DNA from: Channallabes apus
Taxonomy: Eukaryota; Chordata; Actinopteri; Siluriformes; Clariidae
Assembly (NCBI GenBank): GCA_030522415.1
Contig: JAMASW010000060.1
Coordinates: 1 to 64,000 of the forward strand
DNA length: 64,000 nt
Direction of reading: 5' to 3'
Positions 1 to 24,983 of the stretch are shown piece by piece (positions within the stretch are counted from its first letter, which is position 1; every line of letters starts with the position of its first letter). Under the pieces are notes generated by a model that saw only the letters and a program-made list of their open reading frames with translations, searched no databases and was not told the DNA's origin. The position numbers and the translations under genes are program-made.

Positions 1-663
1 TATTCCCGTTCCTTCCTGAGAAGCTGTGAGGGTCAATTTCTTGTAAAAAGAAAGAAAGATAGTAAAGAAATGATCCCATTGATCACAACCTTCTCCAAAG
101 GAAGTGTTCATCTAAATAGGTTGATGAAATCAAATTTTCATCATTTTCATATGCAAAACGAACTGTTGGACAACCACAAAATCATTTCAGCCTACCGCAA
201 AAACCAAAATCTTAAAGACATTCTGGTCCGAAGCAGGTTACCACCCTCGGGAGAGGAAAAAAGGAAACCTGCCCCACTAAGAGAAATCAGGCCAAAACGA
301 TGGGTCCAAAACCCACAAACTAAAACCATCTACGAGATTTTCCCGGCCTTGAAATATGACACAAGTAATTGTGTCTATTTAATTTATTGTACAAAGTGCA
401 ATAAACAGTATGTGGGAGAGACCAGAAACACTTTGGCGGTGAGGTTGACACAACATAAATATAACATCAGACATAAAAAAGATTTACACACTGTGGTTGT
501 CCAACATTTCGTAAAACACGGTATTGAATCCCTAAAGGTTATGGGATTACAACAAAACAGATGGTGGTCCCACCACAAGAGAAAACAGGTAGAACGGACA
601 TGGATTGATAATTTAAGTTCCATGCATCCATGGGGTTTAAATGAGCAATCTAGGGTCGTATAA
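1..663 (+). CDS. PLE family 1 ORF2, C-terminal part (cut by window edge)
   Basis: Open from base 1 to the stop at 661-663 and identical in reading to the last 220 residues of the complete ORF2 copies downstream. It carries the end of the reverse transcriptase region and the whole GIY-YIG endonuclease, with a Cys-x2-Cys pair just before Tyr-Val-Gly-Glu-Thr and a catalytic-type Glu in VERTWI. The 5' part lies outside the window, so this is a truncation by the window and not a biological break. It is the last part of a fourth array unit, which shows that the tandem array continues to the left. Confidence 0.93.
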   Translation, partial: YSRSFLRSCEGQFLVKRKKDSKEMIPLITTFSKGSVHLNRLMKSNFHHFHMQNELLDNHKIISAYRKNQNLKDILVRSRLPPSGEEKRKPAPLREIRPKRWVQNPQTKTIYEIFPALKYDTSNCVYLIYCTKCNKQYVGETRNTLAVRLTQHKYNIRHKKDLHTVVVQHFVKHGIESLKVMGLQQNRWWSHHKRKQVERTWIDNLSSMHPWGLNEQSRVV

Positions 664-767
664 GGCTCATGTTCAGGAGAACCAAGTGGCGGGGATGTCG
701 GTGCTTGGTGACTGTGAGGTAGGCCAGTGCACAACGTGGATGTTGGAGATTGCCCACTCTGCGCTTT

Positions 768-959
768 CTATCCCCTACCCTTACCTATCCCTAATCCAAA
801 CCTATCCCTAACCATAACCTTCCCCACCCTTTCCAACCCTATTTTTTCCTAGCCCTAATCTTTTCTAACCCTAACTTACCCAACCCTAATTTTAACCTTT
901 CATTTCCGGCGTGGGAGCGGGCATGACCTGGCGTCGCGGCCATTTCCCCTAACCTAACC
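768..959 (+). repeat. Degenerate telomere-like 3' end of PLE family 1 (unit 0)
   Basis: About 190 bases of the 3' untranslated region consist of variants of CCCTAA (ccctaccctta, tatccctaatcc, ccctaacttaccc and similar), then a short unique stretch with a gcgtgggagcgggcatgacc core, ending in cccctaacctaacc. The next unit starts immediately after base 959. The same block ends each of the three complete units. In the last unit it is the exact point where array sequence stops and subtelomeric sequence begins, so it is the 3' terminus of the element. C-rich repeats follow the coding strand. Confidence 0.85.
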
Positions 960-1384
960 TAGCCAGTGCCACCTCCGATAGTTGAGCTACCGATGTATCT
1001 GCATCATCCATGGAACCTGTAAAAAAGAATATGATATTTCATAAATTGATTATAAACAATGGATAAAACAATATTTTCTTGGACCTTAAAATGATTGAAT
1101 AAACAGAATTATGGATGTTTTAATCATTTAACATATATTGGTTAATTATACTTACCTGGATATACTTACCTGTTCTAATTTAATATATTGCAAAAATTGG
1201 GAAATTTAAAAAAAAAAAAATGGAAAATAAGGGACAAAAATAATTATTATGATTTTATTTATAATTTTGAATACAAGGAGACCATATTAGGAATTATCAG
1301 GGAGAGGAAAAAACCAAGTGAGGAAAATAAAAATAAGCTCCAAACTGAAAGTTTTTTGTTATTTTCTTTTTTCCTTTTTACAAG

Positions 1385-1415
1385 GGGGCGGAGCTTAGCC
1401 TCAGGGTATGACTCA
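1385..1415 (+). promoter_or_regulatory. Promoter-like segment (GC box and AP-1 site) of PLE family 1
   Basis: In an otherwise AT-rich 5' region there is a GGGGCGGAG GC box at 1385-1393 and a perfect TGACTCA (AP-1 consensus) at 1409-1415. The same pair recurs in the other units (GC boxes at 6887-6895 and 12390-12398). No TATA box is obvious in a suitable position. That this drives element transcription is inference from motif content and from its place about 500 bases upstream of the hammerhead and ORF1. Confidence 0.35.
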
Positions 1416-1888
1416 CAGGCAGGCAGCCTTTCAGTTGGAGATAGAGAGCTGTAGGAGCAACACGGTTGAGCTATTGTTGAGTTTAGAGCCTTTTCTATTG
1501 GAAAAAATTGTTCAGAACTGACAAAGGATTGTTTAAAGACTTTAGTCTTTCTTCCTAAAAGCCAGAGTGAACTCTTTATCCAAGAGGACAAAACTTCTCT
1601 CTTATATATATTTATATTAATATATTTTTCCTCATTTCATTTTTAAGTTTGTTTTGCTAACAAGCTTTGTCTTAGCATAGCTTTGTTTTGCTAACAAGCT
1701 TCTTCTTAAGAAAAAATATTTTTTTTCCTTGGCAAACTCTTTTCCTCCCTGTTTCAGTGTTTTGTTTAGTTCATTACACAAAAAAAAAAAAAAAAAAAAT
1801 TTTTTCTTTCTTCTGTATTCAATTTTCTTTCCCTTTTCCTTTTCTCATATTTTTGAAATAAAAAATATTTTAGAATTTTATTATTTTT

Positions 1889-1948
1889 GGCAAGTCTATG
1901 CCTGATGAAGGCTTGATTAAGCCGAAACGTTGCAGCAACAGACTTGCC
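1889..1948 (+). ncRNA. Hammerhead-ribozyme-like motif (unit 1)
   Basis: Core CTGATGA at 1902-1908 and GAAACGTT at 1924-1931 flank a 5-bp stem II (GGCTT/AAGCC, loop GATT). Stem I pairs GGCAAGTCT (1889-1897) with AGACTTGCC (1940-1948), continued by GC/GC next to the core across an internal loop. Stem III is minimal (A-CG-U), which in known PLE hammerheads favours action as dimers. The expected cut is after 1931. One extra A lies between the core and stem II; it is also present in the family 2 and family 3 motifs. Sequence and pairing are seen directly; catalytic activity is inferred. Confidence 0.75.
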
Positions 1949-1970
1949 TTTTGATTTAATTGATTTAAAT

Positions 1971-3968
1971 ATGTCATACCGCGGTCCATTCTATCCAGGA
2001 CGGGAGAGACGATACTCCCATCCTGATGATTGGCGATGGAGAGAGAGATATCCCCACCCTGATAACTGGTATCATGCCAGATATAGGGAATACAAAGTTC
2101 CCCAATATACCAGGGAGTTCAGAAACAGTGACCTTTACCCTAGATTCACTCAGAATTACCCTAGGCATATACCTGAATGGAGCAATTATGACCCCTACTG
2201 GAGACAGTGGGGACGTGCTCCAAGACGTAATAACACTCAAAAAAGACCACGATCCACCAGTGGCAAACGGGGCACCACAAAAGATAAAAATTCCAAACAA
2301 AAACAGGGCAAAAAACAGAAAAAACAGCCCAAACAAACCAGGAGGGGCAAAAATAAAAAACAAACTGCGGAGGCCCAAGATGAAAAATTTAGAGCCTTAG
2401 TTAAACAGTTGTTGGAATTACTGAGATCCTTCCATCATCTTGAGAAGATCTCTATACATGCGGAGGAGGAACCTCCTACTTTTACTAGGCTCACACATTT
2501 TCTGGGTGGCGTAGTAAAACCGGCTAATCTGACACCGGAAACAAAAACCCTCCTGGAAGGGAATGCCAAAAATTGGGCATACACCACACGCCTCATCCTG
2601 CAAGATCACTACATAAATTTCATTGAGAAGGAGAGTGAAATCTTGCAGGAGACATTGATTGGGGATTGGGACACAGCCTTGAAGGTTGCAATTAAGTGGT
2701 ACAGAAGAAGATACCCCAAAAGACATATGCAGGAACCCATAAAGAAAGTCGAAGCACTCCTGCTGTCTTTAGATCAAATTGAAGAACGAAGGGACAGGGA
2801 CACAGATAGGGATGGGGTTACCTCAGTAATCATGGAGGAAGATTTCCCACCCCTGTCACGGGCCCCAGAACCCTCTCCTCCTGTACCAACTGTAACTAGA
2901 GAGAGAACACCTCCCCCTTCCCCTTCCCCGTTTCCCATCGCACTTCCACGCAGGATCCCGCGGCCTAGGCGACGGATCACAGTGCAAGTGTCTTCCCCGA
3001 AAAATCCGGCGGTCGCACATCGGGACGAACATCCAGAACTTATGGAAGTTCATAGTGACCAGGGAACTCAAATAACATGCTTAGATGTGTCAGTTCCCAC
3101 AGAAGTGTCACATGCACAAAGTGTTGTGCCTCATACTGATAAGCCACGTGAGGAGATTCTCTCACACGTAGATACACGTGAGGAGTCCATCACGCCAGTG
3201 GTTCAGGTACACACCATTCAGTACAGCAGCAGTTCGTCCGATGAAAGCGACACTGAACTAGAGCCTCTTATAAATTTTGAGGATGATAGTGGTGAGTTAG
3301 ACGCCTTCCCACTCATGGATTCCCCTTGTTCACTGGGGTTCCAGATGGGGGGATGTCTTCTACCCAAACCCCCTCTAGATCAGCCTAATGTGCTTACCAG
3401 CACACCGTCGGAGTCACCAAAAGCGTACAAGCCCATCAGACACCTGCGCACAGTCAGGAAACTGGTTGATTGGGGTCTCAGTGTGCGTAAAAAATATTGC
3501 ATTCTGGGAGACTCCAATGTGAGTAGATTTCCTCATCACTCATTGGCTGATGTCCAGATTGACAGTTACCCAGGCGCCACATTCAGACACGCTGAGAACT
3601 TAATTAAGAAAGCACAGGTGCACGTGGCTGTAGAAAAGGTGGTCTTATCCTTCGGGATAAATCACCGGGGTCAAAAAATGAAGTTGACGGCTATTAAAGA
3701 AATGCAGCGGGCTTTGAAGGCAGCGAGGGAGAAATTTCCCAATGCCGACATCAGAATCCCGCTCATCAATTTCTCCAGGACATTAAGAGGAGACGAACAA
3801 ATGATCCTGGATAGCTTAAATAGCCACATCGGGAGAAACATGTCTCACCTACCATTATTGCCAAAAACGCAATTCAGGGTAGGTGATGACCAAATTCATT
3901 GGACATTAAATTGTGCTCGAGCCATATTTGAACAATGGGTCGAGCACTTAAACTTAGCTGCCCTATAA
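1971..3968 (+). CDS. PLE family 1 ORF1: basic protein with C-terminal SGNH/GDSL-type hydrolase domain
   Basis: 665 residues from the ATG at 1971; the frame is open a little further upstream but without an ATG. Residues 1-55 are rich in Arg, Tyr, Trp and Pro; 85-140 are strongly basic (Lys/Arg/Gln), suiting RNA binding or a nuclear signal. Residues about 140-270 form a region shared with the other PLE families here (Lys-Pro-Ala motif, then a helical Trp-rich stretch). A Pro/Ser/acidic linker follows. Residues about 505-660 are SGNH-like: GDSN with nucleophile Ser515, a PGA block II glycine, G562-x-N564, and Asp640-x-x-His643. All catalytic positions are present. Probably a cofactor of the element's RNP; its substrate is unknown. 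Units 2 and 3 differ by one Ser-to-Arg change in the acidic linker. Confidence 0.85.
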   Translation: MSYRGPFYPGRERRYSHPDDWRWRERYPHPDNWYHARYREYKVPQYTREFRNSDLYPRFTQNYPRHIPEWSNYDPYWRQWGRAPRRNNTQKRPRSTSGKRGTTKDKNSKQKQGKKQKKQPKQTRRGKNKKQTAEAQDEKFRALVKQLLELLRSFHHLEKISIHAEEEPPTFTRLTHFLGGVVKPANLTPETKTLLEGNAKNWAYTTRLILQDHYINFIEKESEILQETLIGDWDTALKVAIKWYRRRYPKRHMQEPIKKVEALLLSLDQIEERRDRDTDRDGVTSVIMEEDFPPLSRAPEPSPPVPTVTRERTPPPSPSPFPIALPRRIPRPRRRITVQVSSPKNPAVAHRDEHPELMEVHSDQGTQITCLDVSVPTEVSHAQSVVPHTDKPREEILSHVDTREESITPVVQVHTIQYSSSSSDESDTELEPLINFEDDSGELDAFPLMDSPCSLGFQMGGCLLPKPPLDQPNVLTSTPSESPKAYKPIRHLRTVRKLVDWGLSVRKKYCILGDSNVSRFPHHSLADVQIDSYPGATFRHAENLIKKAQVHVAVEKVVLSFGINHRGQKMKLTAIKEMQRALKAAREKFPNADIRIPLINFSRTLRGDEQMILDSLNSHIGRNMSHLPLLPKTQFRVGDDQIHWTLNCARAIFEQWVEHLNLAAL

Positions 3969-6169
3969 ACCCAAAACCGGGATTATTGGATAGGAAGAGT
4001 GAAGTGCTAAATTTGTCCAAACACTTCACTCCTACAAAAGGGCAAATTCAATTATTAAGTAAGGGCCTTACTTTCATCCCTACACCCAAAATTAATATAA
4101 ATACAAAAAAACAATTGATCGCTGATGCACAGCAATATCATAGGAGACTGCTTCTGGCAGCCTTCTATAGATTTGAGAAGGAGGGAGAAATCCTTCCGTT
4201 TACAGGAAAGTCCAACTGGACCCCCAAATTATCTCAGGTCCCAAATACTATCAGACAGATAATTAGAGCAGATAAATATGCGATCAGGAATATACCCTGG
4301 AACTACAGGGTAGTTTCAAACCTGAGTAGGGATGAAAGACAGGCCCTACTACAATTAAAAAATAATAGATCCATTGTGATCAAGCCGGCCGATAAAGGAA
4401 GTGCTGTGGTCATAATGGATCTACAGACATATATAATGGAGGCGGAACGACAGTTGAACCAGGAAGAGTATTATAAAAAACTTTCAGAACCCATCTTCCT
4501 TAAAACGGTTCCTGTCGTACGGGACATACTCACTAAATTAAGGGAGGAGGGTTTTATAAACAAAAAACAAGAAACTTACCTGTTGGGCCCTGACAATCCA
4601 CGCCCCAGGTATTTCTACCTCCTCCCTAAAATCCATAAGGAGCCACACAGCTGGAGTGTTCCTTTTGAGATGCCACCGGGCCGCCCCATTGTCTCTGACT
4701 GTGGCAGTGAAACACAGGCCACAGCAGAGTATATTGAATATTTCCTCAACCCGATCAGCACCAGACACCCAAGTTACATTAGAGACACCTATGATTTCAT
4801 TGAAAAGATAAAACATCTTTCTCTCCCTCCTGACTGTTTCCTGTTCACTATCGATATTGATAGTTTATACACCAATATCGAAACACCAGCTGGTATGGAA
4901 GCGGTCAGAGAGTGGTTTATTAAATTCCCTGATAAAAACAGACCTGAGCAAGCCATTTTAAAATTACTGGACATTAACCTTACAAAAAATGATTTTGAAT
5001 TTAATTCCAAGCATTACCTCCAGGTCAAAGGTACAGCCATGGGCAAAAAGTTTGCCCCTTCCTATGCCAACATATTCATGGCAAGATGGGAGGAAAGGGC
5101 ATTGGCTGCTTGGGAATTTAAACCCTTTAGTTATTATAGGTTTCTTGATGACATTTGGGGTGTTTGGACCGGTACTGAGGATGAATTTAAACAATTTGCG
5201 GACCACCTAAACAATTTTCACCGTTCAATAAAAATCAAATACACGATGGACAGAGCGGGTGTCAACTTTTTGGACACAGTAACCTATAAGGGCAAAGGAT
5301 TTGTGGAGACGGGCAAATTGGATGTCAGAGTCTTTTTTAAAGACACTGACACTCATGCACTTCTCCACAAATCAAGCTTTCATCCAAAGCATACTTTTAG
5401 GGGTATTGTGAAATCTCAGATACAGAGATTTCACAGAATATGTACCCAGCCCGAGGATTTCCTGGAAGCGAAAAGCACTCTCTTTTCGGCACTCCGGAAA
5501 CGAGGTTATTCCCGTTCCTTCCTGAGAAGCTGTGAGGGTCAATTTCTTGTAAAAAGAAAGAAAGATAGTAAAGAAATGATCCCATTGATCACAACCTTCT
5601 CCAAAGGAAGTGTTCATCTAAATAGGTTGATGAAATCAAATTTTCATCATTTTCATATGCAAAACGAACTGTTGGACAACCACAAAATCATTTCAGCCTA
5701 CCGCAAAAACCAAAATCTTAAAGACATTCTGGTCCGAAGCAGGTTACCACCCTCGGGAGAGGAAAAAAGGAAACCTGCCCCACTAAGAGAAATCAGGCCA
5801 AAACGATGGGTCCAAAACCCACAAACTAAAACCATCTACGAGATTTTCCCGGCCTTGAAATATGACACAAGTAATTGTGTCTATTTAATTTATTGTACAA
5901 AGTGCAATAAACAGTATGTGGGAGAGACCAGAAACACTTTGGCGGTGAGGTTGACACAACATAAATATAACATCAGACATAAAAAAGATTTACACACTGT
6001 GGTTGTCCAACATTTCGTAAAACACGGTATTGAATCCCTAAAGGTTATGGGATTACAACAAAACAGATGGTGGTCCCACCACAAGAGAAAACAGGTAGAA
6101 CGGACATGGATTGATAATTTAAGTTCCATGCATCCATGGGGTTTAAATGAGCAATCTAGGGTCGTATAA
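3935..6169 (+). CDS. PLE family 1 ORF2: reverse transcriptase with GIY-YIG endonuclease
   Basis: 744 residues from the ATG at 3935, inside the end of ORF1 (34-nt overlap, -1 frame), so expression by re-initiation or coupled translation is likely. PLE hallmarks are present: the N-terminal IVIKPADKGSAVVIMD block (about residues 148-163), the LPKIHK and GRPIVSD segments, motif A with Asp307/Asp309, motif B GTAMGKKFAPSYANIF, and motif C FLDD with Asp405/Asp406. The C-terminal GIY-YIG domain (about 645-735) has Cys654-x2-Cys657, Tyr661-Val-Gly663, an Arg/His helix and Glu722. No frameshift or stop; likely active. The protein would nick DNA and reverse transcribe the element RNA at the nick or at an existing 3' end. 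RT of PLEs is related to telomerase RT (established knowledge). Confidence 0.95.
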   Translation: MGRALKLSCPINPKPGLLDRKSEVLNLSKHFTPTKGQIQLLSKGLTFIPTPKININTKKQLIADAQQYHRRLLLAAFYRFEKEGEILPFTGKSNWTPKLSQVPNTIRQIIRADKYAIRNIPWNYRVVSNLSRDERQALLQLKNNRSIVIKPADKGSAVVIMDLQTYIMEAERQLNQEEYYKKLSEPIFLKTVPVVRDILTKLREEGFINKKQETYLLGPDNPRPRYFYLLPKIHKEPHSWSVPFEMPPGRPIVSDCGSETQATAEYIEYFLNPISTRHPSYIRDTYDFIEKIKHLSLPPDCFLFTIDIDSLYTNIETPAGMEAVREWFIKFPDKNRPEQAILKLLDINLTKNDFEFNSKHYLQVKGTAMGKKFAPSYANIFMARWEERALAAWEFKPFSYYRFLDDIWGVWTGTEDEFKQFADHLNNFHRSIKIKYTMDRAGVNFLDTVTYKGKGFVETGKLDVRVFFKDTDTHALLHKSSFHPKHTFRGIVKSQIQRFHRICTQPEDFLEAKSTLFSALRKRGYSRSFLRSCEGQFLVKRKKDSKEMIPLITTFSKGSVHLNRLMKSNFHHFHMQNELLDNHKIISAYRKNQNLKDILVRSRLPPSGEEKRKPAPLREIRPKRWVQNPQTKTIYEIFPALKYDTSNCVYLIYCTKCNKQYVGETRNTLAVRLTQHKYNIRHKKDLHTVVVQHFVKHGIESLKVMGLQQNRWWSHHKRKQVERTWIDNLSSMHPWGLNEQSRVV

Positions 6170-6273
6170 GGCTCATGTTCAGGAGAACCAAGTGGCGGGG
6201 ATGTCGGTGCTTGGTGACTGTGAGGTAGGCCAGTGCACAACGTGGATGTTGGAGATTGCCCACTCTGCGCTTT

Positions 6274-6465
6274 CTATCCCCTACCCTTACCTATCCCTAA
6301 TCCAAACCTATCCCTAACCATAACCTTCCCCACCCTTTCCAACCCTATTTTTTCCTAGCCCTAATCTTTTCTAACCCTAACTTACCCAACCCTAATTTTA
6401 ACCTTTCATTTCCGGCGTGGGAGCGGGCATGACCTGGCGTCGCGGCCATTTCCCCTAACCTAACC
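6274..6465 (+). repeat. Degenerate telomere-like 3' end of unit 1
   Basis: Same block as at the end of unit 0: CCCTAA variants followed by a GC-rich core and the terminal cccctaacctaacc. It is joined directly to the 5' region of unit 2. Confidence 0.85.
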
Positions 6466-7387
6466 TAGCCAGTGCCACCTCCGATAGTTGAGCTACCGAT
6501 GTATCTGCATCATCCATGGAACCTGTAAAAAAGAATATGATATTTCATAAATTGATTATAAACAATGGATAAAACAATATTTTCTTGGACCTTAAAATGA
6601 TTGAATAAACAGAATTATGGATGTTTTAATCATTTAACATATATTGGTTAATTATACTTACCTGGATATACTTACCTGTTCTAATTTAATATATTGCAAA
6701 AATTGGGAAATTTAAAAAAAAATGGAAAATAAGGGACAAAAATAATTATTATGATTTTATTTATAATTTTGAATACAAGGAGACCATATTAGGAATTATC
6801 AGGGAGAGGAAAAAACCAAGTGAGGAAAATAAAAATAAGCTCCAAACTGAAAGTTTTTTGTTATTTTCTTTTTTCCTTTTTACAAGGGGGCGGAGCTTAG
6901 CCTCAGGGTATGACTCACAGGCAGGCAGCCTTTCAGTTGGAGATAGAGAGCTGTAGGAGCAACACGGTTGAGCTATTGTTGAGTTTAGAGCCTTTTCTAT
7001 TGGAAAAAATTGTTCAGAACTGACAAAGGATTGTTTAAAGACTTTAGTCTTTCTTCCTAAAAGCCAGAGTGAACTCTTTATCCAAGAGGACAAAACTTCT
7101 CTCTTATATATATTTATATTAATATATTTTTCCTCATTTCATTTTTAAGTTTGTTTTGCTAACAAGCTTTGTCTTAGCATAGCTTTGTTTTGCTAACAAG
7201 CTTCTTCTTAAGAAAAAATATTTTTTTTCCTTGGCAAACTCTTTTCCTCCCTGTTTCAGTGTTTTGTTTAGTTCATTACACAAAAAAAAAAAAAAAAAAA
7301 TTTTCTTTCTTCTGTATTCAATTTTCTTTCCCTTTTCCTTTTCTCATATTTTTGAAATAAAAAATATTTTAGAATTTTATTATTTTT

Positions 7388-7447
7388 GGCAAGTCTATGC
7401 CTGATGAAGGCTTGATTAAGCCGAAACGTTGCAGCAACAGACTTGCC
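7388..7447 (+). ncRNA. Hammerhead-ribozyme-like motif (unit 2)
   Basis: Base-for-base the same motif as in unit 1, with identical core, stem I and stem II. Because each unit has one, a read-through transcript of the array would be cut into unit-length RNAs if the motif is active. Confidence 0.75.
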
Positions 7448-7469
7448 TTTTGATTTAATTGATTTAAAT

Positions 7470-9467
7470 ATGTCATACCGCGGTCCATTCTATCCAGGAC
7501 GGGAGAGACGATACTCCCATCCTGATGATTGGCGATGGAGAGAGAGATATCCCCACCCTGATAACTGGTATCATGCCAGATATAGGGAATACAAAGTTCC
7601 CCAATATACCAGGGAGTTCAGAAACAGTGACCTTTACCCTAGATTCACTCAGAATTACCCTAGGCATATACCTGAATGGAGCAATTATGACCCCTACTGG
7701 AGACAGTGGGGACGTGCTCCAAGACGTAATAACACTCAAAAAAGACCACGATCCACCAGTGGCAAACGGGGCACCACAAAAGATAAAAATTCCAAACAAA
7801 AACAGGGCAAAAAACAGAAAAAACAGCCCAAACAAACCAGGAGGGGCAAAAATAAAAAACAAACTGCGGAGGCCCAAGATGAAAAATTTAGAGCCTTAGT
7901 TAAACAGTTGTTGGAATTACTGAGATCCTTCCATCATCTTGAGAAGATCTCTATACATGCGGAGGAGGAACCTCCTACTTTTACTAGGCTCACACATTTT
8001 CTGGGTGGCGTAGTAAAACCGGCTAATCTGACACCGGAAACAAAAACCCTCCTGGAAGGGAATGCCAAAAATTGGGCATACACCACACGCCTCATCCTGC
8101 AAGATCACTACATAAATTTCATTGAGAAGGAGAGTGAAATCTTGCAGGAGACATTGATTGGGGATTGGGACACAGCCTTGAAGGTTGCAATTAAGTGGTA
8201 CAGAAGAAGATACCCCAAAAGACATATGCAGGAACCCATAAAGAAAGTCGAAGCACTCCTGCTGTCTTTAGATCAAATTGAAGAACGAAGGGACAGGGAC
8301 ACAGATAGGGATGGGGTTACCTCAGTAATCATGGAGGAAGATTTCCCACCCCTGTCACGGGCCCCAGAACCCTCTCCTCCTGTACCAACTGTAACTAGAG
8401 AGAGAACACCTCCCCCTTCCCCTTCCCCGTTTCCCATCGCACTTCCACGCAGGATCCCGCGGCCTAGGCGACGGATCACAGTGCAAGTGTCTTCCCCGAA
8501 AAATCCGGCGGTCGCACATCGGGACGAACATCCAGAACTTATGGAAGTTCATAGTGACCAGGGAACTCAAATAACATGCTTAGATGTGTCAGTTCCCACA
8601 GAAGTGTCACATGCACAAAGTGTTGTGCCTCATACTGATAAGCCACGTGAGGAGATTCTCTCACACGTAGATACACGTGAGGAGTCCATCACGCCAGTGG
8701 TTCAGGTACACACCATTCAGTACAGCAGCAGTTCGTCCGATGAAAGCGACACTGAACTAGAGCCTCTTATAAATTTTGAGGATGATCGTGGTGAGTTAGA
8801 CGCCTTCCCACTCATGGATTCCCCTTGTTCACTGGGGTTCCAGATGGGGGGATGTCTTCTACCCAAACCCCCTCTAGATCAGCCTAATGTGCTTACCAGC
8901 ACACCGTCGGAGTCACCAAAAGCGTACAAGCCCATCAGACACCTGCGCACAGTCAGGAAACTGGTTGATTGGGGTCTCAGTGTGCGTAAAAAATATTGCA
9001 TTCTGGGAGACTCCAATGTGAGTAGATTTCCTCATCACTCATTGGCTGATGTCCAGATTGACAGTTACCCAGGCGCCACATTCAGACACGCTGAGAACTT
9101 AATTAAGAAAGCACAGGTGCACGTGGCTGTAGAAAAGGTGGTCTTATCCTTCGGGATAAATCACCGGGGTCAAAAAATGAAGTTGACGGCTATTAAAGAA
9201 ATGCAGCGGGCTTTGAAGGCAGCGAGGGAGAAATTTCCCAATGCCGACATCAGAATCCCGCTCATCAATTTCTCCAGGACATTAAGAGGAGACGAACAAA
9301 TGATCCTGGATAGCTTAAATAGCCACATCGGGAGAAACATGTCTCACCTACCATTATTGCCAAAAACGCAATTCAGGGTAGGTGATGACCAAATTCATTG
9401 GACATTAAATTGTGCTCGAGCCATATTTGAACAATGGGTCGAGCACTTAAACTTAGCTGCCCTATAA
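7470..9467 (+). CDS. PLE family 1 ORF1, unit 2
   Basis: 665 residues from the ATG at 7470. Same domain order as unit 1: basic N-terminus, shared Lys-Pro-Ala region, Pro/Ser/acidic linker, SGNH domain with GDSN nucleophile block and terminal Asp-x-x-His. The only amino-acid difference that I see from unit 1 is Arg for Ser in the run EDDxGELD. Intact. Confidence 0.85.
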   Translation: MSYRGPFYPGRERRYSHPDDWRWRERYPHPDNWYHARYREYKVPQYTREFRNSDLYPRFTQNYPRHIPEWSNYDPYWRQWGRAPRRNNTQKRPRSTSGKRGTTKDKNSKQKQGKKQKKQPKQTRRGKNKKQTAEAQDEKFRALVKQLLELLRSFHHLEKISIHAEEEPPTFTRLTHFLGGVVKPANLTPETKTLLEGNAKNWAYTTRLILQDHYINFIEKESEILQETLIGDWDTALKVAIKWYRRRYPKRHMQEPIKKVEALLLSLDQIEERRDRDTDRDGVTSVIMEEDFPPLSRAPEPSPPVPTVTRERTPPPSPSPFPIALPRRIPRPRRRITVQVSSPKNPAVAHRDEHPELMEVHSDQGTQITCLDVSVPTEVSHAQSVVPHTDKPREEILSHVDTREESITPVVQVHTIQYSSSSSDESDTELEPLINFEDDRGELDAFPLMDSPCSLGFQMGGCLLPKPPLDQPNVLTSTPSESPKAYKPIRHLRTVRKLVDWGLSVRKKYCILGDSNVSRFPHHSLADVQIDSYPGATFRHAENLIKKAQVHVAVEKVVLSFGINHRGQKMKLTAIKEMQRALKAAREKFPNADIRIPLINFSRTLRGDEQMILDSLNSHIGRNMSHLPLLPKTQFRVGDDQIHWTLNCARAIFEQWVEHLNLAAL

Positions 9468-11668
9468 ACCCAAAACCGGGATTATTGGATAGGAAGAGTG
9501 AAGTGCTAAATTTGTCCAAACACTTCACTCCTACAAAAGGGCAAATTCAATTATTAAGTAAGGGCCTTACTTTCATCCCTACACCCAAAATTAATATAAA
9601 TACAAAAAAACAATTGATCGCTGATGCACAGCAATATCATAGGAGACTGCTTCTGGCAGCCTTCTATAGATTTGAGAAGGAGGGAGAAATCCTTCCGTTT
9701 ACAGGAAAGTCCAACTGGACCCCCAAATTATCTCAGGTCCCAAATACTATCAGACAGATAATTAGAGCAGATAAATATGCGATCAGGAATATACCCTGGA
9801 ACTACAGGGTAGTTTCAAACCTGAGTAGGGATGAAAGACAGGCCCTACTACAATTAAAAAATAATAGATCCATTGTGATCAAGCCGGCCGATAAAGGAAG
9901 TGCTGTGGTCATAATGGATCTACAGACATATATAATGGAGGCGGAACGACAGTTGAACCAGGAAGAGTATTATAAAAAACTTTCAGAACCCATCTTCCTT
10001 AAAACGGTTCCTGTCGTACGGGACATACTCACTAAATTAAGGGAGGAGGGTTTTATAAACAAAAAACAAGAAACTTACCTGTTGGGCCCTGACAATCCAC
10101 GCCCCAGGTATTTCTACCTCCTCCCTAAAATCCATAAGGAGCCACACAGCTGGAGTGTTCCTTTTGAGATGCCACCGGGCCGCCCCATTGTCTCTGACTG
10201 TGGCAGTGAAACACAGGCCACAGCAGAGTATATTGAATATTTCCTCAACCCGATCAGCACCAGACACCCAAGTTACATTAGAGACACCTATGATTTCATT
10301 GAAAAGATAAAACATCTTTCTCTCCCTCCTGACTGTTTCCTGTTCACTATCGATATTGATAGTTTATACACCAATATCGAAACACCAGCTGGTATGGAAG
10401 CGGTCAGAGAGTGGTTTATTAAATTCCCTGATAAAAATAGACCTGAGGAAGCCATTTTAAAATTGCTGGACATTAACCTTACAAAAAATGATTTTGAATT
10501 TAATTCCAAGCATTACCTCCAGGTCAAAGGTACAGCCATGGGCAAAAAGTTTGCCCCTTCCTATGCCAACATATTCATGGCAAGATGGGAGGAAAGGGCA
10601 TTGGCTGCTTGGGAATTTAAACCCTTTAGTTATTATAGGTTTCTTGATGACATTTGGGGTGTTTGGACCGGTACTGAGGATGAATTTAAACAATTTGCGG
10701 ACCACCTAAACAATTTTCACCGTTCAATAAAAATCAAATACACGATGGACAGAGCGGGTGTCAACTTTTTGGACACAGTAACCTATAAGGGCAAAGGATT
10801 TGTGGAGACGGGCAAATTGGATGTCAGAGTCTTTTTTAAAGACACTGACACTCATGCACTTCTCCACAAATCAAGCTTTCATCCAAAGCATACTTTTAGG
10901 GGTATTGTGAAATCTCAGATACAGAGATTTCACAGAATATGTACCCAGCCCGAGGATTTCCTGGAAGCGAAAAGCACTCTCTTTTCGGCACTCCGGAAAC
11001 GAGGTTATTCCCGTTCCTTCCTGAGAAGCTGTGAGGGTCAATTTCTTGTAAAAAGAAAGAAAGATAGTAAAGAAATGATCCCATTGATCACAACCTTCTC
11101 CAAAGGAAGTGTTCATCTAAATAGGTTGATGAAATCAAATTTTCATCATTTTCATATGCAAAACGAACTGTTGGACAACCACAAAATCATTTCAGCCTAC
11201 CGCAAAAACCAAAATCTTAAAGACATTCTGGTCCGAAGCAGGTTACCACCCTCGGGAGAGGAAAAAAGGAAACCTGCCCCACTAAGAGAAATCAGGCCAA
11301 AACGATGGGTCCAAAACCCACAAACTAAAACCATCTACGAGATTTTCCCGGCCTTGAAATATGACACAAGTAATTGTGTCTATTTAATTTATTGTACAAA
11401 GTGCAATAAACAGTATGTGGGAGAGACCAGAAACACTTTGGCGGTGAGGTTGACACAACATAAATATAACATCAGACATAAAAAAGATTTACACACTGTG
11501 GTTGTCCAACATTTCGTAAAACACGGTATTGAATCCCTAAAGGTTATGGGATTACAACAAAACAGATGGTGGTCCCACCACAAGAGAAAACAGGTAGAAC
11601 GGACATGGATTGATAATTTAAGTTCCATGCATCCATGGGGTTTAAATGAGCAATCTAGGGTCGTATAA
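9434..11668 (+). CDS. PLE family 1 ORF2 (RT plus GIY-YIG), unit 2
   Basis: 744 residues, intact, overlapping ORF1 by 34 nt as in unit 1. It differs from units 1 and 3 by Glu for Gln in the segment RPExAILK upstream of motif B. All RT and GIY-YIG key residues are kept, so the change is probably neutral. Confidence 0.95.
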   Translation: MGRALKLSCPINPKPGLLDRKSEVLNLSKHFTPTKGQIQLLSKGLTFIPTPKININTKKQLIADAQQYHRRLLLAAFYRFEKEGEILPFTGKSNWTPKLSQVPNTIRQIIRADKYAIRNIPWNYRVVSNLSRDERQALLQLKNNRSIVIKPADKGSAVVIMDLQTYIMEAERQLNQEEYYKKLSEPIFLKTVPVVRDILTKLREEGFINKKQETYLLGPDNPRPRYFYLLPKIHKEPHSWSVPFEMPPGRPIVSDCGSETQATAEYIEYFLNPISTRHPSYIRDTYDFIEKIKHLSLPPDCFLFTIDIDSLYTNIETPAGMEAVREWFIKFPDKNRPEEAILKLLDINLTKNDFEFNSKHYLQVKGTAMGKKFAPSYANIFMARWEERALAAWEFKPFSYYRFLDDIWGVWTGTEDEFKQFADHLNNFHRSIKIKYTMDRAGVNFLDTVTYKGKGFVETGKLDVRVFFKDTDTHALLHKSSFHPKHTFRGIVKSQIQRFHRICTQPEDFLEAKSTLFSALRKRGYSRSFLRSCEGQFLVKRKKDSKEMIPLITTFSKGSVHLNRLMKSNFHHFHMQNELLDNHKIISAYRKNQNLKDILVRSRLPPSGEEKRKPAPLREIRPKRWVQNPQTKTIYEIFPALKYDTSNCVYLIYCTKCNKQYVGETRNTLAVRLTQHKYNIRHKKDLHTVVVQHFVKHGIESLKVMGLQQNRWWSHHKRKQVERTWIDNLSSMHPWGLNEQSRVV

Positions 11669-11772
11669 GGCTCATGTTCAGGAGAACCAAGTGGCGGGGA
11701 TGTCGGTGCTTGGTGACTGTGAGGTAGGCCAGTGCACAACGTGGATGTTGGAGATTGCCCACTCTGCGCTTT

Positions 11773-11964
11773 CTATCCCCTACCCTTACCTATCCCTAAT
11801 CCAAACCTATCCCTAACCATAACCTTCCCCACCCTTTCCAACCCTATTTTTTCCTAGCCCTAATCTTTTCTAACCCTAACTTACCCAACCCTAATTTTAA
11901 CCTTTCATTTCCGGCGTGGGAGCGGGCATGACCTGGCGTCGCGGCCATTTCCCCTAACCTAACC
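11773..11964 (+). repeat. Degenerate telomere-like 3' end of unit 2
   Basis: Same terminal CCCTAA-variant block, followed at once by the 5' region of unit 3. Confidence 0.85.
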
Positions 11965-12892
11965 TAGCCAGTGCCACCTCCGATAGTTGAGCTACCGATG
12001 TATCTGCATCATCCATGGAACCTGTAAAAAAGAATATGATATTTCATAAATTGATTATAAACAATGGATAAAACAATATTTTCTTGGACCTTAAAATGAT
12101 TGAATAAACAGAATTATGGATGTTTTAATCATTTAACATATATTGGTTAATTATACTTACCTGGATATACTTACCTGTTCTAATTTAATATATTGCAAAA
12201 ATTGGGAAATTTAAAAAAAAAAAAATGGAAAATAAGGGACAAAAATAATTATTATGATTTTATTTATAATTTTGAATACAAGGAGACCATATTAGGAATT
12301 ATCAGGGAGAGGAAAAAACCAAGTGAGGAAAATAAAAATAAGCTCCAAACTGAAAGTTTTTTGTTATTTTCTTTTTTCCTTTTTACAAGGGGGCGGAGCT
12401 TAGCCTCAGGGTATGACTCACAGGCAGGCAGCCTTTCAGTTGGAGATAGAGAGCTGTAGGAGCAACACGGTTGAGCTATTGTTGAGTTTAGAGCCTTTTC
12501 TATTGGAAAAAATTGTTCAGAACTGACAAAGGATTGTTTAAAGACTTTAGTCTTTCTTCCTAAAAGCCAGAGTGAACTCTTTATCCAAGAGGACAAAACT
12601 TCTCTCTTATATATATTTATATTAATATATTTTTCCTCATTTCATTTTTAAGTTTGTTTTGCTAACAAGCTTTGTCTTAGCATAGCTTTGTTTTGCTAAC
12701 AAGCTTCTTCTTAAGAAAAAATATTTTTTTTCCTTGGCAAACTCTTTTCCTCCCTGTTTCAGTGTTTTGTTTAGTTCATTACACAAAAAAAAAAAAAAAA
12801 AAATTTTTTCTTTCTTCTGTATTCAATTTTCTTTCCCTTTTCCTTTTCTCATATTTTTGAAATAAAAAATATTTTAGAATTTTATTATTTTT

Positions 12893-12952
12893 GGCAAGTC
12901 TATGCCTGATGAAGGCTTGATTAAGCCGAAACGTTGCAGCAACAGACTTGCC
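12893..12952 (+). ncRNA. Hammerhead-ribozyme-like motif (unit 3)
   Basis: Identical to the motif in units 1 and 2, 22 bases upstream of the ORF1 ATG. Confidence 0.75.
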
Positions 12953-12974
12953 TTTTGATTTAATTGATTTAAAT

Positions 12975-14972
12975 ATGTCATACCGCGGTCCATTCTATCC
13001 AGGACGGGAGAGACGATACTCCCATCCTGATGATTGGCGATGGAGAGAGAGATATCCCCACCCTGATAACTGGTATCATGCCAGATATAGGGAATACAAA
13101 GTTCCCCAATATACCAGGGAGTTCAGAAACAGTGACCTTTACCCTAGATTCACTCAGAATTACCCTAGGCATATACCTGAATGGAGCAATTATGACCCCT
13201 ACTGGAGACAGTGGGGACGTGCTCCAAGACGTAATAACACTCAAAAAAGACCACGATCCACCAGTGGCAAACGGGGCACCACAAAAGATAAAAATTCCAA
13301 ACAAAAACAGGGCAAAAAACAGAAAAAACAGCCCAAACAAACCAGGAGGGGCAAAAATAAAAAACAAACTGCGGAGGCCCAAGATGAAAAATTTAGAGCC
13401 TTAGTTAAACAGTTGTTGGAATTACTGAGATCCTTCCATCATCTTGAGAAGATCTCTATACATGCGGAGGAGGAACCTCCTACTTTCACTAGGCTCACAC
13501 ATTTTCTGGGTGGCGTAGTAAAACCGGCTAATCTGACACCGGAAACAAAAACCCTCCTGGAAGGGAATGCCAAAAATTGGGCATACACCACACGCCTCAT
13601 CCTGCAAGATCACTACATAAATTTCATTGAGAAGGAGAGTGAAATCTTGCAGGAGACATTGATTGGGGATTGGGACACAGCCTTGAAGGTTGCAATTAAG
13701 TGGTACAGAAGAAGATACCCCAAAAGACATATGCAGGAACCCATAAAGAAAGTCGAAGCACTCCTGCTGTCTTTAGATCAAATTGAAGAACGAAGGGACA
13801 GGGACACAGATAGGGATGGGGTTACCTCAGTAATCATGGAGGAAGATTTCCCACCCCTGTCACGGGCCCCAGAACCCTCTCCTCCTGTACCAACTGTAAC
13901 TAGAGAGAGAACACCTCCCCCTTCCCCTTCCCCGTTTCCCATCGCACTTCCACGCAGGATCCCGCGGCCTAGGCGACGGATCACAGTGCAAGTGTCTTCC
14001 CCGAAAAATCCGGCGGTCGCACATCGGGACGAACATCCAGAACTTATGGAAGTTCATAGTGACCAGGGAACTCAAATAACATGCTTAGATGTGTCAGTTC
14101 CCACAGAAGTGTCACATGCACAAAGTGTTGTGCCTCATACTGATAAGCCACGTGAGGAGATTCTCTCACACGTAGATACACGTGAGGAGTCCATCACGCC
14201 AGTGGTTCAGGTACACACCATTCAGTACAGCAGCAGTTCGTCCGATGAAAGCGACACTGAACTAGAGCCTCTTATAAATTTTGAGGATGATCGTGGTGAG
14301 TTAGACGCCTTCCCACTCATGGATTCCCCTTGTTCACTGGGGTTCCAGATGGGGGGATGTCTTCTACCCAAACCCCCTCTAGATCAGCCTAATGTGCTTA
14401 CCAGCACACCGTCGGAGTCACCAAAAGCGTACAAGCCCATCAGACACCTGCGCACAGTCAGGAAACTGGTTGATTGGGGTCTCAGTGTGCGTAAAAAATA
14501 TTGCATTCTGGGAGACTCCAATGTGAGTAGATTTCCTCATCACTCATTGGCTGATGTCCAGATTGACAGTTACCCAGGCGCCACATTCAGACACGCTGAG
14601 AACTTAATTAAGAAAGCACAGGTGCACGTGGCTGTAGAAAAGGTGGTCTTATCCTTCGGGATAAATCACCGGGGTCAAAAAATGAAGTTGACGGCTATTA
14701 AAGAAATGCAGCGGGCTTTGAAGGCAGCGAGGGAGAAATTTCCCAATGCCGACATCAGAATCCCGCTCATCAATTTCTCCAGGACATTAAGAGGAGACGA
14801 ACAAATGATCCTGGATAGCTTAAATAGCCACATCGGGAGAAACATGTCTCACCTACCATTATTGCCAAAAACGCAATTCAGGGTAGGTGATGACCAAATT
14901 CATTGGACATTAAATTGTGCTCGAGCCATATTTGAACAATGGGTCGAGCACTTAAACTTAGCTGCCCTATAA
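12975..14972 (+). CDS. PLE family 1 ORF1, unit 3
   Basis: 665 residues, intact, with the complete SGNH catalytic set. The protein matches unit 2 (Arg in the acidic linker). A silent T-to-C change is seen at about 13486 (ttttac to tttcac). Confidence 0.85.
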   Translation: MSYRGPFYPGRERRYSHPDDWRWRERYPHPDNWYHARYREYKVPQYTREFRNSDLYPRFTQNYPRHIPEWSNYDPYWRQWGRAPRRNNTQKRPRSTSGKRGTTKDKNSKQKQGKKQKKQPKQTRRGKNKKQTAEAQDEKFRALVKQLLELLRSFHHLEKISIHAEEEPPTFTRLTHFLGGVVKPANLTPETKTLLEGNAKNWAYTTRLILQDHYINFIEKESEILQETLIGDWDTALKVAIKWYRRRYPKRHMQEPIKKVEALLLSLDQIEERRDRDTDRDGVTSVIMEEDFPPLSRAPEPSPPVPTVTRERTPPPSPSPFPIALPRRIPRPRRRITVQVSSPKNPAVAHRDEHPELMEVHSDQGTQITCLDVSVPTEVSHAQSVVPHTDKPREEILSHVDTREESITPVVQVHTIQYSSSSSDESDTELEPLINFEDDRGELDAFPLMDSPCSLGFQMGGCLLPKPPLDQPNVLTSTPSESPKAYKPIRHLRTVRKLVDWGLSVRKKYCILGDSNVSRFPHHSLADVQIDSYPGATFRHAENLIKKAQVHVAVEKVVLSFGINHRGQKMKLTAIKEMQRALKAAREKFPNADIRIPLINFSRTLRGDEQMILDSLNSHIGRNMSHLPLLPKTQFRVGDDQIHWTLNCARAIFEQWVEHLNLAAL

Positions 14973-17173
14973 ACCCAAAACCGGGATTATTGGATAGGAA
15001 GAGTGAAGTGCTAAATTTGTCCAAACACTTCACTCCTACAAAAGGGCAAATTCAATTATTAAGTAAGGGCCTTACTTTCATCCCTACACCCAAAATTAAT
15101 ATAAATACAAAAAAACAATTGATCGCTGATGCACAGCAATATCATAGGAGACTGCTTCTGGCAGCCTTCTATAGATTTGAGAAGGAGGGAGAAATCCTTC
15201 CGTTTACAGGAAAGTCCAACTGGACCCCCAAATTATCTCAGGTCCCAAATACTATCAGACAGATAATTAGAGCAGATAAATATGCGATCAGGAATATACC
15301 CTGGAACTACAGGGTAGTTTCAAACCTGAGTAGGGATGAAAGACAGGCCCTACTACAATTAAAAAATAATAGATCCATTGTGATCAAGCCGGCCGATAAA
15401 GGAAGTGCTGTGGTCATAATGGATCTACAGACATATATAATGGAGGCGGAACGACAGTTGAACCAGGAAGAGTATTATAAAAAACTTTCAGAACCCATCT
15501 TCCTTAAAACGGTTCCTGTCGTACGGGACATACTCACTAAATTAAGGGAGGAGGGTTTTATAAACAAAAAACAAGAAACTTACCTGTTGGGCCCTGACAA
15601 TCCACGCCCCAGGTATTTCTACCTCCTCCCTAAAATCCATAAGGAGCCACACAGCTGGAGTGTTCCTTTTGAGATGCCACCGGGCCGCCCCATTGTCTCT
15701 GACTGTGGCAGTGAAACACAGGCCACAGCAGAGTATATTGAATATTTCCTCAACCCGATCAGCACCAGACACCCAAGTTACATTAGAGACACCTATGATT
15801 TCATTGAAAAGATAAAACATCTTTCTCTCCCTCCTGACTGTTTCCTGTTCACTATCGATATTGATAGTTTATACACCAATATCGAAACACCAGCTGGTAT
15901 GGAAGCGGTCAGAGAGTGGTTTATTAAATTCCCTGATAAAAACAGACCTGAGCAAGCCATTTTAAAATTACTGGACATTAACCTTACAAAAAATGATTTT
16001 GAATTTAATTCCAAGCATTACCTCCAGGTCAAAGGTACAGCCATGGGCAAAAAGTTTGCCCCTTCCTATGCCAACATATTCATGGCAAGATGGGAGGAAA
16101 GGGCATTGGCTGCTTGGGAATTTAAACCCTTTAGTTATTATAGGTTTCTTGATGACATTTGGGGTGTTTGGACCGGTACTGAGGATGAATTTAAACAATT
16201 TGCGGACCACCTAAACAATTTTCACCGTTCAATAAAAATCAAATACACGATGGACAGAGCGGGTGTCAACTTTTTGGACACAGTAACCTATAAGGGCAAA
16301 GGATTTGTGGAGACGGGCAAATTGGATGTCAGAGTCTTTTTTAAAGACACTGACACTCATGCACTTCTCCACAAATCAAGCTTTCATCCAAAGCATACTT
16401 TTAGGGGTATTGTGAAATCTCAGATACAGAGATTTCACAGAATATGTACCCAGCCCGAGGATTTCCTGGAAGCGAAAAGCACTCTCTTTTCGGCACTCCG
16501 GAAACGAGGTTATTCCCGTTCCTTCCTGAGAAGCTGTGAGGGTCAATTTCTTGTAAAAAGAAAGAAAGATAGTAAAGAAATGATCCCATTGATCACAACC
16601 TTCTCCAAAGGAAGTGTTCATCTAAATAGGTTGATGAAATCAAATTTTCATCATTTTCATATGCAAAACGAACTGTTGGACAACCACAAAATCATTTCAG
16701 CCTACCGCAAAAACCAAAATCTTAAAGACATTCTGGTCCGAAGCAGGTTACCACCCTCGGGAGAGGAAAAAAGGAAACCTGCCCCACTAAGAGAAATCAG
16801 GCCAAAACGATGGGTCCAAAACCCACAAACTAAAACCATCTACGAGATTTTCCCGGCCTTGAAATATGACACAAGTAATTGTGTCTATTTAATTTATTGT
16901 ACAAAGTGCAATAAACAGTATGTGGGAGAGACCAGAAACACTTTGGCGGTGAGGTTGACACAACATAAATATAACATCAGACATAAAAAAGATTTACACA
17001 CTGTGGTTGTCCAACATTTCGTAAAACACGGTATTGAATCCCTAAAGGTTATGGGATTACAACAAAACAGATGGTGGTCCCACCACAAGAGAAAACAGGT
17101 AGAACGGACATGGATTGATAATTTAAGTTCCATGCATCCATGGGGTTTAAATGAGCAATCTAGGGTCGTATAA
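14939..17173 (+). CDS. PLE family 1 ORF2 (RT plus GIY-YIG), unit 3
   Basis: 744 residues, intact, same as the unit 1 protein (Gln before motif B). Overlaps ORF1 by 34 nt. Confidence 0.95.
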   Translation: MGRALKLSCPINPKPGLLDRKSEVLNLSKHFTPTKGQIQLLSKGLTFIPTPKININTKKQLIADAQQYHRRLLLAAFYRFEKEGEILPFTGKSNWTPKLSQVPNTIRQIIRADKYAIRNIPWNYRVVSNLSRDERQALLQLKNNRSIVIKPADKGSAVVIMDLQTYIMEAERQLNQEEYYKKLSEPIFLKTVPVVRDILTKLREEGFINKKQETYLLGPDNPRPRYFYLLPKIHKEPHSWSVPFEMPPGRPIVSDCGSETQATAEYIEYFLNPISTRHPSYIRDTYDFIEKIKHLSLPPDCFLFTIDIDSLYTNIETPAGMEAVREWFIKFPDKNRPEQAILKLLDINLTKNDFEFNSKHYLQVKGTAMGKKFAPSYANIFMARWEERALAAWEFKPFSYYRFLDDIWGVWTGTEDEFKQFADHLNNFHRSIKIKYTMDRAGVNFLDTVTYKGKGFVETGKLDVRVFFKDTDTHALLHKSSFHPKHTFRGIVKSQIQRFHRICTQPEDFLEAKSTLFSALRKRGYSRSFLRSCEGQFLVKRKKDSKEMIPLITTFSKGSVHLNRLMKSNFHHFHMQNELLDNHKIISAYRKNQNLKDILVRSRLPPSGEEKRKPAPLREIRPKRWVQNPQTKTIYEIFPALKYDTSNCVYLIYCTKCNKQYVGETRNTLAVRLTQHKYNIRHKKDLHTVVVQHFVKHGIESLKVMGLQQNRWWSHHKRKQVERTWIDNLSSMHPWGLNEQSRVV

Positions 17174-17277
17174 GGCTCATGTTCAGGAGAACCAAGTGGC
17201 GGGGATGTCGGTGCTTGGTGACTGTGAGGTAGGCCAGTGCACAACGTGGATGTTGGAGATTGCCCACTCTGCGCTTT

Positions 17278-17520
17278 CTATCCCCTACCCTTACCTATCC
17301 CTAATCCAAACCTATCCCTAACCATAACCTTCCCCACCCTTTCCAACCCTATTTTTTCCTAGCCCTAATCTTTTCTAACCCTAACTTACCCAACCCTAAT
17401 TTTAACCTTTCATTTCCGGCGTGGGAGCGGGCATGACCTGGCGTCGCGGCCATTTCCCCTAACCTAACCCTAACCCTAGAGAGTCCCCTAGCCCCAGCCT
17501 AACCATAACCCTGTGAGCCC
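17278..17520 (+). repeat. Telomere-like 3' end of unit 3 running into telomeric repeats
   Basis: The family 1 terminal block ends at 17469 and is continued by aaccctaaccctagagag and further CCCTAA variants. Here the element's own CCCTAA-rich end meets genomic telomeric-type repeat in the same register and orientation. That is what annealing to a chromosome end, or insertion into telomeric DNA, would leave. Confidence 0.8.
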
Positions 17521-18560: not shown

Positions 18561-18562
18561 CG

Positions 18563-18582
18563 TTAGGGTTAGGGTTAGGGTT
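18563..18582 (+). repeat. Short telomeric array (TTAGGG)3
   Basis: Three perfect hexamers plus TT, G-rich on the plus strand, opposite in orientation to the CCCTAA at the end of unit 3. It lies at the 3' side of the minus-strand PLE relic. Confidence 0.9.
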
Positions 18583-21045: not shown

Positions 21046-21264
21046 CTTGACCTTCCAATACCAATAGAATGTGACCACTAACCAAACTTTTTGAAGATTT
21101 TCCAAATCGTCTCAGTCCTTTCAGGCTCCAGAAGAATGTAGTCTTGAAGCTTGCGTTGATCTTATTCCAGGTTCTGGATATAAGTTCTGTGATGCCTTGG
21201 TTTAAGGATTCCACCACAGCTTCAGACCGGCTTAAGGAGGGGGAGAGGTCAAAGAGATAAAAAC

Positions 21265-21297
21265 AACCCTAACCCTAGGGTTAGGGTTAGGGTTAGG
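21265..21297. repeat. Telomeric repeat inversion point (CCCTAA then TTAGGG)
   Basis: Reads aaccctaaccctagggttagggttagggttagg: C-rich repeats switch to G-rich repeats at CCCTAGGG. This is the opposite of an end-to-end telomere fusion, which reads TTAGGG then CCCTAA. It separates the minus-strand relic from the inverted family 2 3' arm. Confidence 0.9.
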
Positions 21298-21869: not shown

Positions 21870-21900
<31 letters not shown>

Positions 21901-22383: not shown

Positions 22384-22607
22384 AGTGCCATTGGACACTT
22401 CCGTTGATTTTATCCATAAGATTTTTTAATAGGTGTGAACTCCATTTTCTAGAGAAAACATGGTTTTCAGTGGGGGACTTCTTTTTTGAAAATGAGATGT
22501 TCAAGGTGGAGGACCCAAGGTGGGAAACCAATTGGGGAGGATTAAGGCGGGATCATCTTTTTGGAGGGAAAATTTCAACCACAGAGAAAGCTGCTCCTTG
22601 TTAACAA

Positions 22608-22669: not shown

Positions 22670-22697
22670 GAGGCCTAGTTTCTCAGACATAACTGTT

Positions 22698-24981: not shown

Positions 24982-24983
24982 GA

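What the first reader, a model, noticed from the sequence alone, without database searches (positions are those of the whole stretch)
1..17469. Head-to-tail array of a PLE carrying an SGNH hydrolase ORF1, RT-GIY-YIG ORF2 and telomere-like 3' ends
Three complete, intact 5.5-kb units and part of a fourth combine features that I have not seen described together in a vertebrate: a two-ORF Penelope-like element whose first ORF ends in a catalytically complete SGNH domain, whose second has both RT and GIY-YIG, and whose 3' end is CCCTAA-like. The closest known analogy is the telomeric Athena/Terminon PLEs of bdelloid rotifers, which lack the endonuclease. Novelty is not verified.
Basis: partly seen in the sequence, partly recalled or inferred. 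Interest (0 to 1): 0.88.

Follow-up and report, generated by a model that had tools for sequence, protein, structure and literature searches.

The report
Fish retroelements ending in telomere repeats
A fish genome window carries a tandem array of an intact jumping gene whose tail end reads like the telomere repeat, and a relative in another sequence is built the same way, which suggests that these elements plug themselves into telomere-type DNA.

Summary
The array is real. Units of 5506, 5499 and 5506 bp (about 99.8% identical) plus a partial fourth each carry intact ORF1 (665 aa) and ORF2 (744 aa). ORF2 has RT and GIY-YIG domains. ORF1 ends in a complete SGNH domain, supported by a predicted fold. 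All four 3' ends readable to their outer boundary run into CCCTAA repeats. Five 3'UTRs hold 161 telomere hexamers on the sense strand, none on the other. A contig in a bacterial single-cell record, presumably surgeonfish DNA, holds two head-to-tail units of a relative (52% ORF2 identity) behind 41 bp of near-perfect CCCTAA repeat. SGNH esterases in endonuclease-bearing fish PLEs, ribozymes and tandem arrays are already published (PMC5408684, PMC11167929). Telomere-complementary 3' ends I saw described only for endonuclease-less Athena/Terminons (PMC6431247). Best reading: a PLE group that keeps its endonuclease and joins its 3' end to TTAGGG repeats. Chromosome-end location could not be tested.

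The parts
1..958 (+). Partial unit: end of ORF2 (1-663) and 3'UTR with telomere-like repeats
959..6464 (+). Complete unit 1 (5506 bp)
6465..11963 (+). Complete unit 2 (5499 bp)
11964..17469 (+). Complete unit 3 (5506 bp), last of the array
1889..1948 (+). Type I hammerhead ribozyme, core 1902-1931 (copies with core at 7401 and 12906), 39 nt before the ORF1 start
1971..3968 (+). ORF1, 665 aa: basic N-terminus, conserved helical domain, C-terminal SGNH hydrolase (copies 7470-9467, 12975-14972)
3935..6169 (+). ORF2, 744 aa, RT plus GIY-YIG, in the -1 frame relative to ORF1 (copies 9434-11668, 14939-17173)
17174..17469 (+). 3'UTR of the last unit: 21 CCCTAA-type hexamers on the sense strand, none on the other
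17463..17478 (+). 3' boundary of the array (17469) joined to further CCCTAA-type sequence
18562..21111 (-). Element A: ORF1 remnant in two open frames (19933-21111 and 19524-19976), no ORF2 found, 3' end of about 3.5 CCCTAA repeats at 18562-18583
21276..21985 (-). 5'-truncated copy of family B, 3' end in CCCTAA repeats
22384..28520 (+). Family B element (5' limit set only by the neighbouring truncated copy): hammerhead core at 22704, ORF1 with SGNH (ATG 23443 to 24981), ORF2 24966-27164 (46% identical to the array's), 3' end of about 4.5 TAACCC copies
33066..33497 (+). SGNH fragment, perhaps of a third family
38117..38560 (+). End of a GIY-YIG ORF2 of a third family and its C-rich, telomere-like 3'UTR
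63326..64000 (+). 5' part of a further PLE: hammerhead core at 63339, then an ORF1-like start

Best explanation
These are autonomous Penelope-like retroelements that join their 3' ends to vertebrate telomere-type repeats, at chromosome ends and/or in interstitial tracts. Proposed cycle: (1) the tandem array is transcribed through; (2) hammerhead ribozymes before ORF1 can cut the transcript into units; (3) ORF1 is made, and ORF2 by a -1 shift or re-initiation at the overlap; (4) ORF1 (basic region, helical domain, SGNH esterase) helps assemble or carry the RNP; (5) the C-rich, CCCUAA-like stretch in the 3' part of the RNA pairs with a TTAGGG 3' end, either a telomere overhang or a strand nicked by the GIY-YIG domain, and the RT starts there; (6) repeated insertion beside earlier copies, plus recombination, gives head-to-tail arrays. 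Shown: anatomy, ribozyme sequence and pairing, SGNH motifs and predicted fold, 3' ends in CCCTAA, recurrence in a relative. Inferred: steps 1-6 as events.
For: Four of four 3' ends in the window whose outer boundary can be read run into CCCTAA repeats, from three families. The sense-strand hexamer count is 161 to 0 over five 3'UTRs; in four of the five, 0 of 500 shuffles reach it. blastn between different 3'UTRs matches only in these repeats, while ORF2s are 45-52% identical, so the motif outlasts the rest of the UTR. Locus L001: two units head to tail, 41 bp of CCCTAA repeat before a 5'-truncated 3'UTR. Gene models P0007 (Prochilodus) and P0014 (Metynnis) run from ORF2 sequence into ORF1 sequence, checked by blastp, as expected where one unit follows another. 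Lake sturgeon: degraded GIY-YIG PLEs bounded by telomere-like repeats beside integrated herpesvirus (PMC12031113). An internal RT start is known for a PLE (PMC11167929).
Against: The chromosome location is unknown; no host genome could be searched (genome search did not complete). In the window the array and element A converge across 1.1 kb, and truncated B and full B meet head to head at 22384, so not all can be terminal without fusions or inversions. The B fragment 21986-22383 has no telomeric end. Third-family repeats are only weakly above chance (12 of 500 shuffles). At L001 the telomere stretch is short, grades into a 3'UTR that is itself CCCTAA-like, and comes from a WGA assembly whose two units differ at only 1 of 5141 positions compared without gaps, so an assembly loop is not excluded there. 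No empty site was seen.
Confidence: 0.57

Rival explanations
1. The telomere-like repeat is only a simple-sequence tail carried by the element. Insertion sites are unrelated to telomeres, and the array arose by template jumping or unequal crossing over, as in other PLEs.
For: PLEs are usually tandem and Poseidon cuts AT-rich DNA (PMC11167929); the three internal junctions are identical, which suits amplification of one junction; the hexamers are part of the 3'UTR.
Against: Telomere-type repeats end the element at four boundaries in three families; TTAGGG stands on the other side of the B junction at 21276; L001 starts in CCCTAA repeats; sturgeon PLEs are bounded by telomere-like repeats.
Confidence: 0.23
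2. Targeting is real but only into interstitial or subtelomeric TTAGGG tracts by endonuclease cutting, never to true chromosome ends. (This is a narrower form of the best explanation, so its odds overlap with it.)
For: Endonuclease motifs are kept; elements in both orientations flank a 147-bp satellite that contains CCCTAA.
Against: L001's left end looks like a capped 5' truncation; the TAGGGTTAGGG stretch 5' of element A at 21276 looks like telomerase healing before truncated B attached (inference).
Confidence: 0.35
3. The array in the window is an assembly artefact.
For: Units are nearly identical and no reads were available.
Against: Units differ by five substitutions and homopolymer lengths; the array leaves into different sequence at 17469; a relative is arrayed alike in another assembly, itself not beyond doubt.
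Confidence: 0.05

Closest known systems
Athena / Terminon PLEs of bdelloid rotifers (PMC6431247 and PMC5408684, passages read)
   Same: PLE RT, telomere-complementary 3' end, hammerhead ribozyme, head-to-tail arrays, GDSL/SGNH ORF in some families
   Different: Those are endonuclease-deficient (GIY-YIG only as a stand-alone ORF in some) and have the ribozyme just before the telomeric 3' end. Here GIY-YIG is fused to RT and the ribozyme lies before ORF1, 943 bp past the junction in the array.
Neptune-like PLEs with esterases from fish and molluscs (PMC5408684, passages read)
   Same: Canonical PLE plus esterase, in fish
   Different: The passages read say nothing of telomeric 3' ends; the Cys-rich domain given for Neptune in PMC3846280 (passages) is absent here
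Poseidon of Anolis (PMC11167929, parts 1-2 of 4 read)
   Same: Tandem units, hammerhead near the ORF start, GIY-YIG, internal start of reverse transcription
   Different: Single ORF, AT-rich target, and reverse transcription starts in the beginning of the ORF rather than at a CCCTAA tract
CR1/L2-type LINEs with esterase ORF1 (PMC3905857, search listing; PMC5408684, passages)
   Same: SGNH domain in a gag-like first ORF
   Different: Different RT class; two LINE copies with an SGNH-like first ORF, judged by eye, sit in this same window

Membership tests
Penelope-like elements | RT and GIY-YIG in one ORF | tested here: met
   In 123 aligned ORF2s the six commonest forms printed per motif cover 108 (YxDD), 106 (GIY) and 120 (YIG)
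Penelope-like elements | Tandem arrangement and hammerhead motif | tested here: met
   0 strict ribozyme hits in 200 shuffles of the window
Penelope-like elements | RT groups with PLEs and telomerase in a tree | not tested
   No named reference RTs were on hand; the tree holds only relatives of the query
Neptune clade | Cys-rich domain between RT and endonuclease (PMC3846280) | tested here: not met
   0 of 123 ORF2s show a Cys cluster in the linker; the array's linker has one Cys. The cluster pattern is my own choice.
Athena / Terminon | RT ORF without endonuclease | tested here: not met
   GIY-YIG present
Athena / Terminon | 3' end of reverse-complement telomere repeats | tested here: met
   4 of 4 readable 3' ends
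Athena / Terminon | Ribozyme immediately before the telomeric 3' end | tested here: not met
   Core 943 bp past the junction in the array
Athena / Terminon | 5'-truncated copies capped by telomere repeats | tested here: inconclusive
   L001 1-41, short and in a WGA assembly
Athena / Terminon | Location at chromosome ends | not testable with these tools
   The genome search did not answer in seven tries
SGNH hydrolase | Catalytic S, G, N, H blocks and fold | tested here: met
SGNH hydrolase | Esterase activity | not testable with these tools
   needs an assay
Type I hammerhead ribozyme | CUGANGA core, stem II, GAAA, stem I, NUH site | tested here: met
   Array, B, the element at 63339 and L001; Rfam itself gave no hammerhead hit; cleavage not tested

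The most novel reading that the evidence does not exclude
Ray-finned fishes carry a widespread group of endonuclease-bearing, SGNH-bearing PLEs that add themselves to live chromosome ends by pairing their own CCCUAA tract with the TTAGGG overhang. That would be a telomere-building retroelement in vertebrates working beside telomerase, and it would show that telomere targeting in PLEs does not need loss of the endonuclease.
Probability: 0.32. Interest if true: 0.86.

Novelty: new variant of a known kind. Interest (0 to 1): 0.63.

Why it matters
PLEs share a common ancestor with telomerase, and telomere attachment by PLEs has been described for endonuclease-deficient forms (PMC3846280). A vertebrate group with endonuclease, esterase ORF1, ribozyme and a telomere-complementary 3' end would separate these traits, would give an intact and apparently young element on which to test telomere priming, and would offer a reason why integrated herpesvirus in sturgeon lies against PLEs (PMC12031113).

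Full report
Observation. The window starts inside a head-to-tail array on the + strand. Three complete units (starts 959, 6465, 11964; 5506, 5499, 5506 bp) follow a partial one, and the array stops at 17469. The three complete units differ at five substitutions (unit-1 positions 2483, 3288, 4939, 4949, 4966) and in homopolymer lengths. Both ORFs are open in all three units.

Ribozymes. A strict description (CTGANGA, stem II of at least 4 pairs, GAAACGT and H, inner stem I of at least 3 pairs) finds the three array copies (1902, 7401, 12906), B (22704), a further element (63339) and both L001 units (941, 6382), and nothing in 200 shuffles of the window. A looser pattern would be met about once per window by chance. 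Rfam reports no hammerhead.

Telomere-like ends. CCCTAA-type hexamers (all rotations) sense/antisense: array 3'UTR 21/0, B 38/0, element A 41/0, L001 42/0, each reached by 0 of 500 shuffles; third family 19/0, reached by 12 of 500; array ORFs 7/4 and 5'UTR 0/0 show no excess. Outer 3' boundaries: array ...TTTCCCCTAACCTAACC then CTAACCCTAGAGAG; A ...TTTTTTAACCCTAACCCTAACCCTAAC then GACCC; truncated B ...CTTAATCCTAACCCTAACCCTAACCC then TAGGGTTAGGG; full B ...CTTAATCCTAACCCTAACCCTAACCCTAACCCT then CCGTAGG. Left out of this count of four: the internal array junctions, the B fragment at 21986-22383 (no telomeric end), the third family (boundary not defined) and the element at 63339 (runs off the window). 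blastn between different 3'UTRs finds short matches only (26 to 45 bp), in the repeat tracts.

Relative elsewhere. Of 37 pattern-matching stretches in the collection of 84,980 prokaryote species genomes, one encodes a relative: LJHE01000041.1, labelled Epulopiscium single cell, presumably DNA of its surgeonfish host (recalled biology). It holds two units with ORF1-SGNH, ORF2 (52% identical to the array's), ribozyme and C-rich 3'UTR. The units are 99.8% identical with 8 mismatches and 3 gap openings over 5578 columns, mostly near the left end; away from it 1 of 5141 positions differs, so an assembly loop cannot be excluded. The left end is 41 bp of CCCTAA repeat running into a truncated 3'UTR where the other copies have degenerate repeats. 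In a quick tree of 70 ORF2s (of 118 long enough, of 123; SH-aLRT support only, midpoint root), array and L001 fall in separate supported parts (99) and B is a long branch of unsure place, so the design is found across the group. Two fish gene models, P0007 (Prochilodus magdalenae) and P0014 (Metynnis hypsauchen), run from ORF2 sequence into ORF1 sequence in that order (blastp), as tandem units would.

Literature. PMC5408684 (passages): esterases in canonical Neptune-like PLEs of fish and molluscs, so that combination is not new. PMC6431247 (passages): Terminons have GDSL ORFs, ribozyme and telomere-complementary 3' ends, in head-to-tail arrays, and are endonuclease-deficient. PMC3846280 (passages): Neptune has a Cys-rich domain between RT and endonuclease. 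PMC11167929 (parts 1-2 of 4): an Anolis Poseidon is tandem, cuts AT-rich DNA and starts reverse transcription inside the RNA. [quoted passage not shown] the authors took such PLEs to integrate at random. I found no description of telomere-ended PLEs with endonuclease in a vertebrate in searches. These cover open-licence PMC papers only; I saw up to 20 listed rows per search and opened only the papers named here plus PMC2678813 and PMC7943196 (passages). Repbase and Dfam were not searched.

Mechanism. Known for a PLE: the RT can start inside its RNA (PMC11167929). Here the four readable boundaries place the start in the C-rich tract, about 0.9 kb before the next unit's ribozyme in the array, unlike Poseidon, where it lies in the start of the ORF. 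Pairing of CCCUAA with a TTAGGG 3' end is the simplest cause. The junction at 21265-21293 (CCCTAACCCTA then GGGTTAGGGTTAGGG) reads like telomerase healing of the 5' end of element A followed by attachment of truncated B. This is inference. Against strict terminal attachment, the array and A converge across 17470-18561, and B copies meet head to head at 22384; this needs interstitial insertion, fusion or inversion.

ORF1/ORF2 link. In the array, B and L001 ORF2 lies in the -1 frame, and the overlap holds CTTAAAC, GTTAAAC and TTTAAAC at the Leu-Asn codons near the ORF1 end (one search prints the stretches). Only L001's meets the strict slippery-site test. Frameshifting is possible but untested.

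Verdict. Real, intact, apparently young, and a new variant of a known kind: a PLE with endonuclease and SGNH ORF1, both known together in fish, plus a telomere-complementary 3' end so far described, in what I read, for endonuclease-less PLEs. Telomere-repeat joining is likely; chromosome-end targeting is open.

Noticed in passing
22384-28520: A second intact PLE family (46% ORF2 identity) with its own ribozyme, SGNH ORF1 and (TAACCC) end, plus a 5'-truncated copy in the opposite orientation at 21276-21985.
   Followed up: yes
21265-21293: CCCTAA and TTAGGG repeats meet in inverted orientation, possibly telomerase healing followed by attachment of a truncated element.
   Followed up: partly
17570-17934: 147-bp tandem satellite containing CCCTAAG repeats next to the array, looking subtelomeric.
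   Followed up: no
18562-21111 (-): PLE-like copy with ORF1 but no ORF2 found, possibly a non-autonomous ORF1-only element.
   Followed up: partly
63326-64000: A further PLE beginning at the right edge, with hammerhead and ORF1-like start.
   Followed up: partly
3935-3968, 24966-24981, L001 3056-3137: ORF2 in the -1 frame with NTTAAAC at the overlap in all three families: candidate programmed frameshift.
   Followed up: partly
48435-51700 (-) and 55679-58943 (+): Two inverted copies (97.8% identical) of a CR1/L2-like LINE (class by recall) whose first ORF also looks SGNH-like by eye.
   Followed up: no
34163-34255: AT-rich near-perfect hairpin (Rfam microRNA hits below the gathering score), probably a small inverted-repeat transposon.
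   Followed up: no
34330-34401 (-): tRNA-like stretch just below Rfam's gathering score, perhaps a SINE head.
   Followed up: no
L001: A contig labelled as bacterial (Epulopiscium single cell) is retroelement DNA of animal type; records labelled Plesiomonas, Cetobacterium and Aeromonas also hold ORF1 proteins, probably host contamination.
   Followed up: partly
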